Origin: Sternotherus odoratus
Taxonomy: Eukaryota > Chordata > Testudines > Kinosternidae
Length of the DNA stretch: 64,000 bases
Assembly (NCBI GenBank): GCA_032164245.1
Contig: JAVMKO010000003.1
Span: forward strand, 11,480,651-11,544,650
Reading direction: 5' to 3'
The position numbers and the translations under genes are program-made. Of the stretch, positions 4,366 to 56,766 are shown piece by piece (the first letter of the stretch is position 1; every line of letters starts with the position of its first letter). The notes beneath the pieces are model-generated. The model made no database searches. It worked only from the letters and a program-made list of their open reading frames with translations, and was not told the origin of the DNA.

Positions 4366-4652
4366 AAGAACATAAGAACATCCATACTGGGTCAGACCTC
4401 TGGTTTATTTAGCTCTGTACCTGTCTCCAGAAGTAGTCAGTACCACAGCTTCAGGGGGAGTGTACGGAACAGGGCAATGCTGGAGAGCTCCATCCCTGTC
4501 TTCCCCTCCTGGCTTCTGCCAGTCAGAAGTTTACAGTTGCCATGAGTGTGGGGTTGCATCCCTGTCTATTTTGGCTAAAAGCCATTGATGACCTACCCTC
4601 CATGAACTTATCCAGCTCTTTTCTGAACCCAGTTATACTTTTGGCCACCTAG
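4366..4652 (-). mobile_element. CR1 LINE 3' end
   Basis: Starts with 'aagaacataagaac', the reverse complement of the CR1 TTCTTATG terminal repeat, followed by 'gggtcagacc' and, at the far side, 'tccatgaacttatccagctctttt...', the reverse complement of the CR1 'LDKFME' coding end. Truncated at about 4652. Confidence 0.8.
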
Positions 4653-6027: not shown

Positions 6028-6115
6028 CCGTATATACTCGAGTATAAGCCGAGTTTTTCAGCCCACTTTTTGGGCTGAAAAAAGCCGCCTCGGCCTATAC
6101 TCGAGTCAGTGAAAA

Positions 6116-6403
6116 ATGTGCGCCCTGGTTCCTCCCCTCCCCGCCGGACAAAAAAAAAAAAAAAAAAAAGCGCCTCGCTCTCCCGTCCCCGCCGCGCGGG
6201 CGGGCTGCCGGGAGCGTCCCGGTTCCCCCCTCCCCGCCGCGGGCGGGCTGCCGGGAGCGCTCCCGGCAGCCCACCCGCGGCGGGGAGGGGGGAACCGGGA
6301 CGCTCCCGGCAGCCCGCCCACGCGGCGGGGACGGGAGAGCGAGGCGCTTTTTTTTTTTTTTTTTTTTTTGTCCGGCGGGGAGGGGAGGAACCGGGGCGCA
6401 CAT
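6116..6403. repeat. 288-bp CpG-dense palindrome
   Basis: Two arms of about 143 bp are centred between 6258 and 6259 (gggagc/gctccc). From the outside inward both arms carry atgtgcgcc, a cctcccctccccgccggac block, a run of about 20 A (T on the right arm), a gcgcctcgctctcccgtcc block, and a ccgcgggcgggctgccggg block. Arms are almost identical apart from run length and a few substitutions. The core 'ggctgccgggagc' is perfect. Confidence 0.85.
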
Positions 6404-6700
6404 TTTTTTTTTGGTCCGGCGGGGAGGTGGGAACCTCGGCAGCCCGCCCGCGCAGCGGGGACGGGAGAGCGAGGAGCTTTTTTTTTTTTTTTTTTTGTCC
6501 GGCGGGGAGGGGAGGAACCGGGGCGCACATTTTTTTTTTGGTCCGGCGGGGAGGGGAGGAACCGGGGCGCACATTTTTTTTTTGGTCCGGCGGGGAGGGG
6601 GGAACCTCGGCAGCCCGCCCGCGGCGGGGAAGGGGGAACCTCGGCAGCCCGCCCGCGCAGCGGGGACGGGAGAGCGAGGCGCTTTTTTTTTTTTTTGTCC
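6404..6700. repeat. Tandem units copied from the palindrome arm
   Basis: After the palindrome, pieces of its right arm recur in direct order: (T)n-gtccggcggggagggg, ggaaccggggcgcacat, aacctcggcagcccgcc and gcggggacgggagagcgag, ending in the poly-T run at 6683-6696. Unit lengths differ, so this looks like unequal exchange or replication slippage. Open frames through it on both strands are artefacts of stop-poor GC and A/T runs. Confidence 0.8.
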
Positions 6701-6809
6701 GGATTTGATATCGGCTTATACTCGAGTCAATAACTTTTCCAGCTTTTTGTGGTAAAATTAGGTGCATCGGCTTATATTCGGGTCGACCTATACTCAAGTA
6801 TATACGGTA

Positions 6810-12229: not shown

Positions 12230-12713
12230 CTAAAGAGGGATATGATAGAGGTATATAAAATTATGAGTGGTGTGGAGAAAGTGAATAAGGAAAAGTTATT
12301 TACTTGTTCCCATAATATAAGAACTAGAGGCCACCCAATGAAATTAGTGGGCAGCAGGTTTAAAACAAATAAAAGGAAGTTCTTCTTCACACAGCGCACA
12401 GTCAACTTGTGGAACTCCTTGCCTGAGGAGGCTGTGAAGGCTAGGACTATAACAGGGTTTAAAAGAGAACTGGATAAATTCATGGAGGTTAAGTCCATTA
12501 ATGGCTATTAGCCAGGATGGCTAAGGAATGGTGTCCCTAGCCTCTGTTTGTCAGAGGGGGGTGATGGATGGCAGGAGAGAGATCGCTTGATCATTACCTG
12601 TTAGGTTCACTCACTCCGGGGCACCTGGCATTGGCTACTGTCGGTAGACAGGATACTGGGCTAGATGGACCATTGGTCTGACCCAGTAGGGCCGTTCTTA
12701 TGTTCTTATGTGG
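12230..12713 (+). mobile_element. CR1 LINE 3' end with intact ORF2 C-terminus
   Basis: An open frame at 12242-12511 (89 codons) encodes the CR1 ORF2 C-terminal end: an [11 protein letters not shown] start, a [18 protein letters not shown] stretch, a [18 protein letters not shown] motif and an [14 protein letters not shown] end. The 3' UTR follows, with 'gggctagatggaccattgg' and the terminal 'gttcttatgttcttatg' repeat at about 12696-12711. This is one of the best-preserved CR1 tails in the window. It is 5'-truncated, so it cannot move. Confidence 0.9.
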
Positions 12714-13534: not shown

Positions 13535-15555
13535 CTAATAAAATGGTTTCCTTCATTGCCTTGAAACATTATTAAAAATATTCTGTTCTCCCTAACAAAA
13601 GCTATGCACGCTTGCAGGTCAAGAAGGCTTTTCCTCTTCCAAAGCTGACAGTGCAGGGCATTGAAAATAGGGCTGAGAAGGGGACTGTGATTGCATGGGT
13701 TGTTCACGGGAGCAGTAGCCTCTTCCTGGGCTATATGTTGCAGGATCAGGGCCTTAACTATAAAAACTTTCTCTGCTGCCAAAGCTCTGACATATGGAAT
13801 AAACCGGTGAGAGCAGAAATAAGAATGGGCATAGTAAAAATAAGCATTAAGTAGATGAGAAAACAATATTGTAGCAATACATCTGCTAAATCAACATGAG
13901 AGAACATGGGCATAATAGATGGAGTTCCTGGAAAATGTTTGTTCCTCATATTTTCTGAAAAGTCTAAATCTAAGGGGTTTTTTTCCCCCTGAGTGCTCTC
14001 ACTTTCAACAATTTACTGTCCCTCACAAATGCCTGTAGCAATGGAAGATTCATTTTTTGCTGCTGTAGGAAGTTAGTTCCCCCTTTCTTTAAAAACTTCC
14101 CCCACCCCCAACCTGGCCATTGGACTAGACAGAGACATGGTTGTTTATGATTTTACCTCATAGTAGTGACTCTAAATATCTGAAGATAGTTCCTCAGCTC
14201 CAGAGCCATGTCTGTGTAATGCCTCCCTCTACTGGATTTCTGTGCACAGATAAGACAGTTAATAGGTTATGGGTCCCTGGCAGCACTGGGAATTGATGTG
14301 CTTCTATGCACATTCTAAAAAGGCTAGCAGGTTTGCACTGAGTTTACAAGGATTAAAAGGCTGACGTACATATAGCTTGGATAAATAATGGCCAAAGGGG
14401 CTGTGATAGTAATCTACAGAAAACTGTCAACATACAGGAACTGAAGTTTGCATTTAAGGCATTACACCCATGTTTAAGTGATGGGACTAGGAAGGGGTGA
14501 GCCTTGTGGAGTTTGGAGCTAGTGAAACTCTTGAAGTGTTTTTTGGGGGTTTGCTCGGTTTACAGAACTGGTCTGAGTTCGTAGACTCCCTTTTGTTCTG
14601 GTAATTTAAACCTATGCCCCATTTTGAATTCAATTTTGTGACCATGTGTTTCTGGCACCTGAGAAAATTGTGATATACCCCCCAGGAGAGACTATATAAT
14701 TGCCAGAAATAGCTACCCTGTTGGCAATATATATATGCATAAAATCAACCATTTTCTGCACAGAAATGGATAAAGATCCTGTTAAAGGGAAAAAACCACA
14801 TGCAGCCTTAATTATGGAGATACTATTGTTCACTCTATGTGTTAAAAGTGCCTAGCATCACAAGGCCTTGATCCCTGATGGGGACCCTAGACACTACTGC
14901 AGAACTACTGGTTTTATTCTTTAATTATACTTTTTTTCACTTTCTCCCCTCTCCAACTTTTCTTAGCTCTCACGGGATTTGAAGGCCAGATCCCATTTTT
15001 CACAGAAACTCCCATCGACTTGCAGAATCAAGTCCTTAGAACCAGACTTAGTTTGGCTGTCAGCTGCACCTGTGCTAAACAATTGTTGATGCACAAGAGG
15101 GAACCGTCTCTAGCTCTCTCTCTCTTAGCTGTGTCAGAGGGGTGGAGGAGAGAATGGATGCCATTCTGAGAGAGATATTAATTAGAATGATTACATTTTG
15201 CAACTGAAAAAATATTTGATCTCGTGCATTATCTTTGATTTGGCTGATGATACTCATTAAATGTAAAATGTCCTCCACCCAAAAGCCATTTGTCAAAATA
15301 ATCTAAAAATACTTTGAAAAACTCAGATGGTTAGATTTCATCCCTCCCTCTCTCCCCCTCCCCCCCATCCTCCTCCTAACCTCGTAAATACTGTGCTGGA
15401 ATATGTAACAGGGATCATGTTTCCTGTGGACAAAATTCCTCAATATCTTGCAGCTTGAATTGTAAAGGGTTGCAGAAGCTCCTATCATTGAGAAGGATCC
15501 TGATCTTTGTGTCCCAGTCAGTTCTTATTTCTTGAAGTTGGCCTGAGTTATAGGA
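13535..15555. other. No gene seen
   Basis: AT-rich. Frames of 60-120 codons at 13504-13949 overlap on opposite strands and show no domain. Position 14865-14910 ('aaggccttgatccctgatgg...') may be a short SINE-tail piece. Confidence 0.4.
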
Positions 15556-16113
15556 ACAGAAGAAGATAAGAATGACCATGCTGGGTCAGACCATCTAGCC
15601 CAGTCATATTGTCTGACAGTGGTCAGTGCCAGGTGCCCCAGAGATAGTGAATAGAACAGGCCATCTCCTGTCATCCACTCCCAGTTTCTGGTGAATAGAG
15701 GCTAGGGACCCTCAGAGCATGGGGTTGCGTCCCTGCCCATCCTGGCTAATAGACATTGATGGACGTATCCTCCATGAACTTATCTAATTCTTTTTAGAAC
15801 ACAGTTATAGTTTTGGCCTTCACAACATCTCCTGACAAAGAGTTCCTCAGGTTGACTGTGCATTGTGTGAAGAAATACCTCTTTTCATTTGTTTTAAAAG
15901 TGCCGACTATTAATTTCATTGGGTGACTCCTAGTTCTTGTGTTATATGAAGGAATAAACAACATTTCCTTATTCACTTCAGTCATGATTTTATAGACCTC
16001 TATCATATCCCTACTTAGTTGTCTCTTCCAAGCTGAAAAGTCCCAGTCTTTTTAATTTCTCCTCATAGAGAAGCTGTTCCATACTCCTAATCATTTTTGT
16101 TGACCTTCTCTGT

Positions 16114-16281
16114 GTGTTTTTCCTAGCGTTATTCCCACACTATGGCAGGGTCCGCTTAGACTGGACACAACCAGTGATATGACTGGGGTATACTCCAACC
16201 GATGCGTCATTCCATCTGTCGTTGGAGGCATTTTATACCTACTGCCAGGTGTTAAGCCTACAGCACCTGGTATTCCCAGGA

Positions 16282-16318
<37 letters not shown>

Positions 16319-16370
16319 TTAGCTTCCAATATCAGATGGGATCGGGCGCGTTTAGGGTGATTTAGCCATA
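16114..16370 (-). mobile_element. 5S rRNA-headed retroposon (SINE3-like or chimeric pseudogene)
   Basis: On the minus strand the unit begins with a nearly complete 5S rRNA (116 nt) and continues with about 140 nt of unrelated sequence (tail starting 'aacacctggcagtagg', ending 'gctaggaaaaacac'). The tail lacks the CR1 ATTCTATG end and a poly-A, so its LINE partner is unclear. It could be a 5S-derived SINE or a single readthrough or template-switch product. Insertion into CR1 makes it younger than that CR1 copy. Confidence 0.75.
16254..16369 (-). pseudogene. 5S rRNA-derived sequence
   Basis: The minus strand contains, in 5S order, 'acgcgcccgat' (nt ~24-34), 'ggaagctaagcaggg' (box A), 'gggcctgg', 'tagtacttggatgggagacc' (box C), 'tgggaataccaggtgctgta' and 'ggctt'. 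Only the first few nucleotides are missing or altered; the region of nt 8-20 carries changes (ggctaaatcaccct). The internal pol III promoter boxes are almost unchanged, so it may once have been transcribable. It is not a functional 5S gene: it lacks the T-run terminator, sits singly in a LINE and has substitutions in paired positions. Confidence 0.9.
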
Positions 16371-17411
16371 TTTGTTGACCTTCTCTGTAACTTTTCCAAT
16401 TCAATATACTTGTTTTAGGATGGGACGACCAGATCTGAATGCCGCATTCAAGGGGTGGGTGAAGATTTATATAGAAGCATTATGATATTTTCTGTCTTAT
16501 TATTTATCAATATGTAATGGTTCCTAACATTCTGCACATTGAGAGGATGTTTTAGGAGAACTATCCACAATGACTCCAAGATCTTTGTCTTGAGTGGTAA
16601 CAGCTAATTTAGACCCCATCATTTTGTATGTATAGTTGGGATTATGTTTTTCAATGAGCATTACTTTGCATTTATCAATGCTAAATTTCATCTGCCATTT
16701 TGTTGCTCAGTCGTTCAGTTTTGTGAGATCCCTTTGTAACTTGTTACAGTCTGCTTTGGACTTTACTATCTTGTAATTTTGATCATCTGCAAATGTTGCC
16801 ACTTCACTGTTTACCGCTGTTCCAAATCATTTATGAAGAGCACTGGTCCCAGTACAGACCTCTGGGGGATACTACTATTTACCTCTCTCTATACTGAAAA
16901 TTGACCATTTATTCATATCCTTTGTTTCCTATCTTTTAACCAGTTACTGATCCATGAGAGGACCTTCCCTCTTATCTCATGACAGCTTACTTTGCTTAGG
17001 AGCCTTTGGTGAGTGATATTGTGAAATGCTTTCTGAAAGTCTAAGTACACTATATCCACTGGTCATCCGTGTCCACATGATTGTTGACCCCCTGAAAGAA
17101 TTCTAATAGATTGGTGAGACATGATTTTCCTTTACAAAAGCTATGTTGATTCTTCCCCAACAAATCTTGTTCATCTGTGTGTCTGATAATTCTATAGTTT
17201 AAACCAGTTTGCCTAGTACTGGTGTTAGGCTCTACTGGTCTGTAATTGCTGGGATCGCCTCTGGAGCCTTTTTAAAAAATTGGTGTTACATTAGCTATCC
17301 TCCAACCATCTGGGACAGAAGCTGATTTAAATTATAGGTTACACACCACAGTAAGTAGTTCTGCAATTTCATATTTGAGTTCCTTCAGAACTTTTGGGTG
17401 AACACCAAGTC

Positions 17412-18559
17412 ACATGTAGTCAGCACAATAACAAATAGCCTTAGGTTTTGAGATCTGCCTAGCTCATGGTATTCTTGCAGTTCATTTAGACACACCTATG
17501 TAGCTGGTGTGCTGATACAGTCTGATATGTAAATGACCTGGATTGTGGGTGCAAAAATGGAAAGCCAGATTTTGTAAATGATGCTCAAACTATTAGAGGA
17601 CACGTCCTCCTTTGGCCAATCTAAGGCTATTTTGAAGAATACCTGGAGATCCTTGGGATATCTGTTTTCTTTCCCTACAGTTCCCGAGAAACATTCACAC
17701 CCTCCCTGAGCCTCTAACTCTCTGTGTAAGCAAATATTAATAAAGTATGGGTGTATTCCAAATACCTTTTTAGACTATGAGGACATAGGAAACAAAAGAA
17801 GCCTTTGACAGAAAGAGCATTGTTTTCATGTGTTCTTTTTGCCAGCAGAAGATGCCAGTATCTGTGAGCACATGAGGTCAATACTCCGGTGAGAATCTCT
17901 TTTAAATAATTTGAATATTTCACATATTAGAACTGCAGGGCCAGACTCAAACCAGTCACTGGGATGCTGGAGGAGAGGAAAAGGCTGGGGTGGGGTAATA
18001 AAACACTGATTTTTATTTTTTACATTTGAGAGACGTGGCTTTGCTGGTTCAGTTCTATAAAACTCCCACTTCATCTAGATTTATGGGTGTATGGTATCCA
18101 AATAAAATCACAGTTTAAGAAATCATCTGTGAGCTTCAAAGGGTAGTTCTGTGAATTACACTCAGAAAATATTCCCTCTTCTGCTCCTCATCTGAACAAA
18201 ACAACAACAGAAGGCAGTAACTTCTCGTCCTATTCTGCATCCCTTTTCATGCTGCCCCCATGTAAGGAATGTTCTCTGAAGACACTGCCTGATTCTGATC
18301 TTTCCTGGAACCATAAAGCCAGATTCTGACCCCAACAAAGGCTGCTGCCAGTCACACCAACCATGCAAAACACCCTTAAATCCAGCTTGAATGGCTTTCT
18401 GGACATTCCCAAGTGGCTCTACACCACTCTCTCACAGATCCTGGAATAGAGAGTATGTTGGGGTATGGCCAGGGAAAGGGGGACATGGTCAAGAAGCCAT
18501 AATCTCCATCCATCCCTGGTTGCCAGACCTCACAGGTAGACACAAGCTTAGTCCCTTTC
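17412..18559. other. No gene seen
   Basis: Unique-looking sequence beyond the CR1 truncation point. Overlapping 60-82 codon frames on both strands, no domain. Confidence 0.45.
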
Positions 18560-21358: not shown

Positions 21359-21596
21359 CAGATATGATTTGCAGGAACGTAGGGTCAAGTTCTCTTCTGT
21401 TACATTAGTGCAACAGCAATGATGTAGATATGTTGACTATGAAATTGCCTGCTATGCCCTAAAGTCAGCATCAATGCTCCCACTGACTTCAGAAGTGCAA
21501 GATCAGCATCAGTAGTGCAATCACTTTTCTGATTACAAACACACTTTAGTTTGTTCTTGGTCTGCATGGTGGTGATTTGCAACATAATTATAATTC

Positions 21597-21655
<59 letters not shown>

Positions 21656-21926
21656 TATATATATACACACACACACATATATATATATAGAGAGAGATGC
21701 ATCATAATTGTTGCAAATCATCACCACAGAGAACAAGTACAGGCTAAAGTAAGTCTGTAATCGGAACCGTGGTTACAGTGCTGATCTTGTACTGCTGAAG
21801 TCAACGAAAATGTTGATACTGACTTTAGTGCAAACCAGACATCTTCACAGTCAACATATCTACAACTTCGCTGTTGTGCTGATAAAACAGAGGAGAACCT
21901 GACCCTGTGTCCCTGCAAATCATATC
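21359..21926. mobile_element. 568-bp foldback (hAT-like) element
   Basis: Two arms of about 240 bp pair over nearly their whole length, roughly 75% identical by eye: left 'gatatgatttgcagg', 'atgtagatatgttgactatg', 'cactgacttcagaagtgcaa' and 'ggtggtgatttgcaac' each reappear inverted at the right. The flanks are identical 8-bp copies of CATTTAGT (21351-21358 and 21927-21934), the duplication size of hAT elements; the left tip starts CAGATATG. No coding capacity. A transcript would form a long hairpin. Confidence 0.75.
21597..21697. repeat. (TA)n/(CA)n/(GA)n microsatellite
   Basis: About 100 bp of alternating TA runs with two (AC)7 blocks and a terminal agagagag, at the centre of the foldback element. 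Pure TA tracts in a palindrome loop favour cruciform extrusion and expansion. Frames here are artefacts. Confidence 0.9.
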
Positions 21927-32597: not shown

Positions 32598-32814
32598 AAT
32601 CAGAGAGGTAGCCGTGTTAGTCTGGAATAGCAGAGGTAACATAGTCCTGTGGCACCTTAAAGACTAATTAAAGTTTTCAAGCATAAGCTTTCGTGGGCTA
32701 ATACCCACTTCGTCGACGAACTGCTTGCATCCGACGAAGTAGGTATTAGCCCACAAAAGCTTATGCTTGAAAACTTTAGTTAGTCTTTAAGGTGCCACAG
32801 GACTCTGTTACATC
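32598..32814. mobile_element. Inverted pair of a short dispersed repeat
   Basis: A plus-orientation copy (32598-32715, AATCAGAGAGGTAGCC... to CACTTCGTCG) faces a partial minus copy (32732-32814, CGACGAAGT... to CTGTTACATC). Together they form a palindrome with arms of about 80 bp centred near 32723. The whole insert is bounded by an exact 11-bp duplication, TGTTTGAAAAT (32587-32597 and 32815-32825), so both copies arrived in one event. Single copies occur at 42206 and 56188. Family not identified; unlike a normal tRNA SINE it has no pol III boxes that I can see. Confidence 0.75.
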
Positions 32815-32825
32815 TGTTTGAAAAT

Positions 32826-41985: not shown

Positions 41986-42205
41986 ACTGCACAAAGCTCA
42001 TTTAATGAGGCAGGGAAAAATAGAATAAAAAATAGCTTCTCCTCTCTCCATGTTCACACCCCCCATTCAAATGCTAGAAGAATAACCCACCCTCCCTGAT
42101 TGGAGATAACAAGCTGGTTCAGCCTAATTGGACTAACCTTGTTACCTCCCACCTGGCTCTTGCCTACTTTTCTATACCTGCCTCTGGACACTTCCACTGC
42201 ATGCA

Positions 42206-42325
42206 TCCGACGAAGTGGGTATTAGCCCACGAAAGCTTATGCTTCAAAACTTTATAGTTAGTCTTTAAGGTGCCACAGGACTTTGTTACCTCTGCTATTC
42301 CAGACTAACACGGCTACCTCTCTGA
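42206..42325 (-). mobile_element. Short dispersed repeat (same family as 32598)
   Basis: Minus-strand copy from 'ctctctga' back to 'gcatccgacg': CAGAGAGGTAGCCGTGTTAG on the minus strand, 'gtggcaccttaaagactaac', and the hairpin CGTGGGCTAATACCCAC near its end. No clear target duplication. Confidence 0.75.
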
Positions 42326-55894: not shown

Positions 55895-56766
55895 TGCCTG
55901 GTAGGGTTGTCAATTGTCTAATTGCGCAAACCCAAAGACCTTACCCCATGCCTTTCCTGAGAAGCTGGCTATGAGTCAACAGTGTGCCCTTGTTGCCAAA
56001 AAGGCTAATGACACTTTGGGCTGTATAAGTAGGAACATTGCCGGCAGACCAAGGGACGTGATCATTCCCCTCTGTTTGGCATTGGTGAGGCCTCATCTGG
56101 AGTACTGTGTCTAGTTTTGGGCCCACATTACAAGAAGGATGTGAAAAAATTGGAAAGAGTCCAGCAGAGGGCAACAAAAATGATTAGAATCAGAGAGGTA
56201 GCCATGTTAGTCTGGAATAGCAGAGGTAACAAAGAGTCCTGTGGCACCTTAAAGACTAACTAAAGTATTGAAGCATAAGCTTTCGTGGGCTAATACCCAC
56301 TTCATCGGATGCAATGATTAGGAGGCTGGAGCACAAGATTTATGAGGAGAGGCTGAGAGAATTGGGACTGTTTAATCTGCAGAAGAGAAGAATGAGGGGG
56401 GGGGGGATTTGATAGCTGCTTTCAACTACCTGAAAGGGGGTTCCAAAGAAGATGGATCTAGACTGTTCTCAGTGGTACCAGATGACAGAACAAGGAGTAA
56501 TGGTCTCAGGTTGCAGTGGGGAAGGTTTAGGTTGGATATTAGGAAACATGTTTTCACTAGGAGGGTGGTGAAGCACTGGAATGGATTACCAAGGGAAGTG
56601 GTGGAATCTCCTTCCTTAGAGGTTTTTAAGGTCAGGCTTGACAAAGCCCTGGCTGGGATGATTTAGTTGGGGATTTAGTTGGGGATTGGTCCTGCTTTGA
56701 GCAGGGAGTTGGACTAGATGACCTCCTGAGGCTCCTTCCAACCCTAATATTCTATGATTCTATGAT
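55895..56766 (+). mobile_element. CR1 LINE 3' part, split by a short repeat
   Basis: Frames give CR1 ORF2 C-terminal blocks in order: 'MSQQCALVAKKANDTLGCI' (55970), 'LCLALVRPHLEYCV', 'KKLERVQQRATKMI', then, after the insertion, '[17 protein letters not shown]', '[19 protein letters not shown]', '[18 protein letters not shown]' and '[13 protein letters not shown]' (stop 56664-56666). The 3' UTR ends in 'attctatgattctatga', the canonical CR1 terminal repeat (56749-56765). Only one in-frame stop (after LEYCV) and the insertion spoil the frame, so it is fairly young. Confidence 0.92.
56188..56312 (+). mobile_element. Short dispersed repeat inserted in CR1
   Basis: 125 bp from AATCAGAGAGGTAGCC to CATCGGATGC, bounded by exact copies of AATGATTAG (56179-56187 and 56313-56321). 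CR1 sequence is continuous if the insert and one copy are removed. The left tip is identical to the copy at 32598, which fixes that end of the element. Confidence 0.88.

What the first reader, a model, noticed from the sequence alone, without database searches (positions are those of the whole stretch)
16096..16388. A 5S rRNA-headed retroposon sits inside a CR1 LINE with an 18-bp target duplication
The minus strand of 16254-16369 is an almost full-length 5S rRNA with intact-looking pol III control boxes, joined to about 140 nt of unrelated sequence, and the unit is flanked by perfect copies of TTTGTTGACCTTCTCTGT. 5S-derived SINEs (SINE3 class, AmnSINE1, fruit-bat and springhare 5S SINEs) are known, but I know of no turtle family with this short body. 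If other copies share the same 140-nt body it is a new SINE family; if not, it is a one-off 5S chimera, perhaps from template switching.
Basis: partly seen in the sequence, partly recalled or inferred. Interest (0 to 1): 0.8.

Follow-up and report, generated by a model that had tools for sequence, protein, structure and literature searches.

The report
5S-headed SINE family in a reptile
The finding is one copy of a short mobile DNA family that borrowed the start of a ribosomal RNA gene and copied itself about a thousand times or more in this reptile-like genome, and a second, larger family shares the same borrowed start but carries a different rest.

Summary
A 257-bp insert (16114-16370, minus strand) lies between perfect 18-bp repeats; its first 117 nt are 5S rRNA nt 4-120 and the other 140 nt are unrelated. 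It is not a one-off chimera or a plain 5S pseudogene. In the window's own 1.76-Gb assembly all 40 scored matches (the window copy among them) cover nearly the whole unit, the 39 others at 95-97% identity (2,538 first-look candidates were not all scored). The 5S/body junction occurs 1,050 times with up to 3 mismatches, 0 for the reversed pattern. Of 87 copies, 63 have clear target duplications, against 5 of 1,715 mismatched flank pairs. The genuine 5S genes end in a T-run with a spacer unlike the body. The unit is therefore a 5S-headed SINE ('type A'). Unexpectedly, a second family ('type B', 2,345 body matches) carries the same derived 5S head on a different body: 15 of 15 type B heads share six changes with type A. 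The partner LINEs were not found; 'turtle' and absence from Repbase/Dfam were not tested. I file it as a new member of a known kind (5S-derived SINEs, SINE3-like).

The parts
16114..16370 (-). Complete copy of the 5S-headed SINE, type A (257 nt)
   Evidence: the 39 other scored genome matches cover it at 95-97% from nt 1-7 to nt 256-257; consensus of 40 copies is also 257 nt
16254..16370 (-). 5S rRNA-derived head (5S nt 4 to about 120)
   Evidence: Rfam RF00001, 87.9 bits; aligned to the native 5S genes of the same genome
16277..16326 (-). Region of the 5S internal pol III control elements (5S nt 48-97; position of the boxes recalled)
   Evidence: only positions 63 and 72 differ from the native 5S gene, and both differences are in the family consensus
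16114..16253 (-). Family-specific body, 140 nt
   Evidence: shared by the 40 aligned copies; absent from the native 5S spacer; no Rfam match
16114..16136 (-). 3' terminus GGGAATAACGCTAGGAAAAACAC, in some other copies followed by a few AC-type repeats before the target duplication
   Evidence: 1,198 genome matches with up to 3 mismatches, reversed-pattern control 3; ends listed
16096..16113 (.). Target-site duplication, left copy
   Evidence: exact 18-bp repeat
16371..16388 (.). Target-site duplication, right copy
   Evidence: exact 18-bp repeat
15541..16095 (.). Host CR1-like element, left part (limits approximate)
   Evidence: 72% identical to 12230-12711 of the window; CR1 name recalled
16389..17460 (.). 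Host CR1-like element, right part (limits approximate; only its first bases were compared)
   Evidence: its first bases continue the paralogous copy at 56148-56187; CR1 name recalled

Best explanation
16114-16370 is one full-length copy of a SINE family, here called type A. RNA polymerase III, directed by the 5S internal control region in the head, transcribes head and body as one RNA of about 260 nt (inferred). A LINE enzyme nicks genomic DNA at a T/A-type site, primes on the 3' end of that RNA (AAAAACAC and AC repeats) and copies it in, which leaves a target duplication, mostly of 15-20 bp (the duplications and nick preference are shown; the enzyme is inferred). This copy landed in an older CR1-like element. 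The head was taken from a 5S gene, gained fixed differences, and now also heads a second, more numerous family (type B) with a different body and a GA-rich 3' end. So one 5S promoter module serves two retroposon families.
For: Shown: 40 of 40 scored hits, the window copy included, cover the unit nearly end to end, the 39 others at 95-97% (only 40 of 2,538 first-look candidates are scored). Junction 27-mer: 540+510 places with up to 3 mismatches, reversed control 0+0. Tail 23-mer: 612+586, control 2+1. Target duplications: 63 of 87 distinct copies versus 5 of 1,715 mismatched pairs; nick site T at -1 in 44 of 54 and A at +1 in 37 of 54 copies with a strong duplication. Native 5S array at C2:153.70 Mb ends in a T-run and its spacer lacks the body. 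The consensus differs from the native 5S at 9 of 116 positions, so most of the window copy's 14 differences are inherited; its differences from the consensus are 4 of 237 non-CpG and 3 of 20 CpG sites. Type B: body 27-mer 1,139+1,206, control 0+0; 9 of 10 such places fetched carry the 5S head directly upstream; 15 of 15 type B heads share with type A the six bases that differ from the native gene at 10, 12, 35, 72, 105, 106. Head 25-mer 1,691+1,736, control 0+0 (native genes fall within its tolerance). No TTTT, which would end a pol III transcript, in the type A consensus or in a type B body typed from six copies.
Against: 24 of the 87 type A copies have no duplication by the fixed rule. No LINE with a matching 3' end was found: a profile of the type A tail found only SINE copies in the window plus 99 of 139 fetched loci, and the reverse-transcriptase search of the genome never ran. 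No transcription data. The samples are biased: the 39 nearest copies, or copies chosen by an exact 27-mer or 23-mer. The +1 A at the nick may partly reflect ambiguity with the AC tail.
Confidence: 0.95

Rival explanations
1. A one-off chimera: a LINE reverse transcriptase switched from some RNA to 5S rRNA, as in 5S/L1 and U6/L1 chimeras.
For: Near full-length 5S ending at the junction, plus a target duplication; such chimeras exist in mammals (PMC13174262, passages).
Against: 1,050 junction matches in the genome; copies share differences from the native 5S; 5S/L1 chimeras are typically antisense and truncated at nt 46 or 90. A single such event may still be how the family began.
Confidence: 0.02
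2. A processed 5S pseudogene or a read-through copy of the 5S gene with its own spacer.
For: The head is nearly a whole 5S gene.
Against: The native gene is followed by a T-run and a spacer with no match to the body at E below 15 (L108 and L109).
Confidence: 0.01
3. Types A and B are two subfamilies of one SINE whose middle and end diverged or were replaced stepwise, not one head joined to two independently acquired bodies.
For: Older-looking type B copies (L133, L138, L139) share with type A a short stretch CCAACGACAGA..TGGA and a hairpin whose stem differs by one compensating pair; alignment scores reached by 9-30 of 1,000 shuffles.
Against: The similarity is marginal and these copies were picked by eye; the type A body and the common type B body align over only 7 bases.
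Confidence: 0.3

Closest known systems
SINE3 / 5S rRNA-derived SINEs (Kapitonov and Jurka 2003, seen only as a reference in PMC3747384)
   Same: 5S-derived pol III head, short non-autonomous body, many dispersed copies with target duplications
   Different: Type A's body does not match Deu (recalled letters) or type B's; the 5S part is kept to its last bases; partner LINE unknown
AmnSINE1 / DeuSINEs (PMC3747384 passages)
   Same: 5S-type head in amniotes
   Different: No Deu-like region by local alignment against recalled letters (294 of 300 shuffles score as well for type A, 111 of 300 for type B). PMC7983390 (passage) speaks of degraded AmnSINE copies; here the nearest 39 copies are 1.4% or 1.9% (another alignment) from the consensus at non-CpG sites
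Ped-1, springhare 5S SINE with a BovB partner (PMC3747384 table row)
   Same: 5S head with a different 3' part
   Different: Different host; similarity to a BovB tail was not tested
Tortoise Pol III / Cry SINE (PMC3747384, PMC7983390 passages)
   Same: The turtle SINE named in these passages
   Different: tRNA-Lys head and PsCR1 partner; here the head is 5S
5S/LINE-1 chimeric insertions (PMC13174262 passages)
   Same: 5S joined to another sequence; 20 of 27 have 7-17 bp target duplications in that paper
   Different: Separate single events, typically antisense and truncated; here a repeated unit, nearly full length

Membership tests
5S-derived SINE (SINE3 in the broad sense) | 5S rRNA-derived 5' head with the internal control region | tested here: met
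   Rfam 87.9 bits; nt 48-97 differ from the native gene at 2 positions
5S-derived SINE (SINE3 in the broad sense) | Short multicopy unit with common 5' and 3' ends | tested here: met
   the 39 other scored hits near full length; 1,050 junction and 1,198 tail matches
5S-derived SINE (SINE3 in the broad sense) | Target duplications at independent sites | tested here: met
   63 of 87 copies, control 5 of 1,715
5S-derived SINE (SINE3 in the broad sense) | 3' end shared with a partner LINE | tested here: inconclusive
   Tail profile found no LINE in the window plus 99 of 139 fetched loci; the genome-wide reverse-transcriptase search did not run
5S-derived SINE (SINE3 in the broad sense) | Transcription by RNA polymerase III | not testable with these tools
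   No expression data; only the absence of TTTT inside the unit was checked
AmnSINE1 / DeuSINE | Deu central domain | tested here: not met
   Local alignment to recalled Deu letters no better than shuffles; no database copy was available
Tortoise Pol III / Cry SINE | tRNA-derived head | tested here: not met
   The head is 5S; ARAGORN finds no tRNA in the window
5S LTR element (Cassandra, Ajax) | Two LTRs and about 5-bp target duplications | tested here: not met
   18-bp duplication; BLAST of the unit against the window shows no second match inside the unit
One-off 5S/LINE chimera | Single insertion event | tested here: not met
   1,050 junction matches

The most novel reading that the evidence does not exclude
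One 5S-derived promoter module, captured once and then diverged, heads two retroposon families with different bodies and 3' ends that are copied by two different LINE machineries. Target duplications look longer for type A than for type B (p = 0.0097 overall with 9 type B values, but p = 0.10 when only older type A copies are used). That would be a clean natural case of a SINE head moving between LINE partners in a non-mammalian vertebrate, in families not yet described.
Probability: 0.35. Interest if true: 0.6.

Novelty: new member of a known kind. Interest (0 to 1): 0.42.

Why it matters
[quoted passage not shown] A young family with thousands of copies gives insertion markers for reptile phylogeny. 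A shared head on two bodies also makes the question of how SINEs change their LINE partner testable. In annotation it matters because heads this close to real 5S genes (about 3,400 matches) can be miscounted as 5S rRNA genes.

Tried and rejected
One-off chimera and 5S pseudogene: rejected by copy number and by the native spacer.

Early dating argument: before the genome search answered, the 18/18 target duplication seemed too perfect for the window copy's divergence from recalled human 5S (7 of 99 non-CpG sites; probability about 0.07 at 7%). The consensus resolved it: most of the divergence was inherited. A concentration of changes upstream of the control region seen at that stage (against recalled human 5S) was not used further.

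Body as an H/ACA snoRNA or other known RNA: no Rfam match even at E up to 5 apart from 5S and a chance U6 hit in the flank. Its 53-nt hairpin is no better than the best window in shuffles (242 of 500); folding of the whole body is only mildly better than shuffles (10 of 200). The body is open in one of six frames for 46 codons; not pursued.

Searches of phages, plasmids, viral contigs and genome contigs gave nothing. They carry no weight: the vertebrate 5S patterns were themselves absent from the two contig collections.

LINE partner: L083 (tail only) and the L107 fragment were considered as LINE ends. I read both as 5'-truncated SINE copies, L083 weakly since it shows no clear duplication. 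A type A tail profile found nothing else. For type B the tail is no commoner than the body (2,136 versus 2,345), so no abundant LINE shares it at 3 mismatches.

Literature: the listings showed me no paper on a turtle 5S SINE. What I saw of each paper is in the full report. Kojima 2015 on snRNA-headed SINEs (seen as a reference in PMC7397244) was not held. Supplements, Repbase and Dfam could not be consulted.

Full report
What is in the window. On the minus strand, 16370 down to 16114 is a 257-nt insert between two exact copies of TTTGTTGACCTTCTCTGT (16096-16113 and 16371-16388). Its first 117 nt are 5S rRNA nt 4 to about 120 (Rfam RF00001, 87.9 bits, the only match above its cut-off in the 64 kb). 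The other 140 nt match no Rfam family and have no significant match elsewhere in the window. The flanks look like a CR1 LINE (name recalled; the left flank is similar to 12230-12711 and 4549-4646). A second CR1-like copy, read on the minus strand at 56187-56148, passes through the same point uninterrupted, so the duplicated 18 bp is single there.

The genome answers the main question. The window is C3:11480651-11544650 of an unnamed 1.759-Gb assembly in 218 contigs. Searching it with the 257 nt gave 40 scored hits (the limit; 2,538 first-look candidates). One is the window copy; the other 39 are 95-97% identical and run from nt 1-7 to nt 256-257. The 27-mer across the 5S/body junction occurs 540+510 times with up to 3 mismatches, and 0 times reversed. 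The 23-mer of the 3' end occurs 612+586 times, reversed 2+1. Flanks differ from copy to copy, while the 5' and 3' ends are shared. From the 99 loci L009-L107, 12 were dropped as duplicates or because the best alignment stopped short of the 3' end; of the 87 left, 63 have a target duplication by a fixed rule, against 5 of 1,715 mismatched flank pairs, and 24 do not. Most duplications are 15-20 bp. In the 54 copies with the strongest duplications, T precedes the nick in 44 and A follows in 37; the A may partly reflect the AC tail. This is a SINE family.

Origin of the head. The best-scoring 5S genes lie in an array at C2:153.70 Mb with about 2.2 kb between genes. They end in a run of T, and the spacer in the two loci compared (L108, L109) has no match to the SINE body at E below 15. 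The type A consensus (40 copies, chosen as nearest to the window copy) differs from the native gene at 9 of 116 positions (6, 10, 12, 35, 37, 63, 72, 105, 106); at 6, 37 and 63 at least 8 of the 40 copies carry the other base. Two of the nine, 63 and 72, fall within nt 48-97. The window copy has 14 differences from the native gene, the same nine and five more. Against the consensus it has 4 changes in 237 non-CpG sites and 3 in 20 CpG sites. The nearest 39 copies average 1.4% non-CpG divergence by local alignment (1.9% for the 40 in the end-to-end alignment), and 30 copies taken in chromosome order by an exact 27-mer average 3.6%. These samples favour young copies.

A second family. Among the top 47 5S-like places (of 70,373 first-look candidates), several outside the gene array carry a different body right after GGCTTAACA. 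Of the 12 with loci, 7 are the gene array, L114, L115, L117 and L118 are type A, and L116 is not. Of the 35 without a locus I fetched ten, leaving out places already known as type A: 5 are type A (L121, L124, L126, L127, L129) and 5 are type B (L120, L122, L123, L125, L128). So the A:B ratio here means nothing. The heads of these five type B copies match the type A consensus over nt 1-121 at 96.7-98.3%. In all 15 type B heads examined the six derived bases at 10, 12, 35, 72, 105 and 106 are those of type A; positions 6, 37 and 63 vary. The type B body 27-mer occurs 1,139+1,206 times, reversed 0. I fetched 10 of the first 15 places listed: 9 have the 5S head directly upstream; the tenth (L136) I read as a truncated copy. 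In one search, 11 type B copies were tested for shared flanking strings; the value for L134 is an artefact (the script compared a stretch with itself) and is dropped. Of the other 10, 9 share 8 or more bases and L135 shares 5; control 3 of 110. The head 25-mer occurs 1,691+1,736 times, reversed 0; the native genes lie within its tolerance. Type A junctions plus type B bodies (1,050 + 2,345 = 3,395) come close to this, but the probes differ, so the agreement is only a rough check.

Are A and B related beyond the head? The type A body and the common type B body align over only 7 bases. Older-looking type B copies L133, L138 and L139 share a short stretch and a hairpin with type A; the alignment score is reached by 14, 30 and 9 of 1,000 shuffles. 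These copies were picked after looking, so I count this as a lead. Target duplications by one exact-match measure are longer in type A (76 of 79 with at least 8 bases, median of those 15) than in type B (9 of 10, 8-13 bases), p = 0.0097; with only older type A copies p = 0.10.

Mechanism. Shown: head, body, common ends, dispersed insertions, target duplications, nick preference. Inferred from how SINEs work in general: pol III transcription from the 5S control region and copying by a LINE in trans. Not found: the LINE. No TTTT occurs in the type A consensus or in the type B body typed from six copies, as expected of a pol III unit.

Comparison with print. PMC3747384 (passages and table rows) lists the tortoise tRNA-Lys SINE and, among vertebrate 5S-headed SINEs, AmnSINE1/SINE3, a salmonid SINE and springhare Ped-1. 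PMC7983390 (passages) speaks of about ten SINE families in reptiles, with Cry limited to turtles. PMC4054807 (passages) describes painted-turtle SINEs as predominantly MIR-like. PMC7397244, PMC7718744 and PMC5451010 (passages, and one section of the last) name no 5S SINE in what I saw. PMC10886601 (passages) says SINE3 arose several times. PMC13174262 (passages) describes 5S/L1 chimeras, typically antisense and truncated. PMC4316615 and PMC7197720 (passages) were read for CR1 and turtle 5S background. The listings showed no paper on a turtle 5S SINE. Repbase and Dfam could not be checked, and a family of this size may well have an entry there.

Verdict. The locus is an ordinary copy of a 5S-headed SINE family; the interest lies in the family, in its sister with the same head, and in the unknown partners.

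Noticed in passing
56148-56313, 42202-42325, 32600-32816: Another repeat (CATCCGACGAAGTGGGTATTAGCCC ... GGCTACCTCTCTGA) occurs three times, once as a head-to-head pair; at 56190-56313 it sits in a CR1-like copy a few bases from the point where the SINE sits in its own CR1 copy, flanked by CTAATCATT repeats.
   Followed up: partly
6036-6800: GC-rich inverted and tandem repeats with long T and A runs inside an element bounded by TATACTCGAGTATAAGCC-like ends.
   Followed up: no
21361-21926: A 566-bp near-palindrome, 74% identical to its own reverse complement.
   Followed up: no
G000 C2:153698008-153713412 (L108-L113, L119): Native 5S rRNA gene array with about 2.2 kb between genes; genes followed by a T-run.
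   Followed up: partly
L114 and L117 (C11): The same SINE insertion with near-identical flanks at two places about 0.87 Mb apart, so probably a segmental duplication carrying the SINE.
   Followed up: no
L121, L124, L126: Type A variants with insertions or deletions in the body; L124 and L126 have AAC- or AAAT-type tails instead of AC repeats.
   Followed up: partly
L085: Several type A pieces, in opposite orientations, at one place.
   Followed up: no
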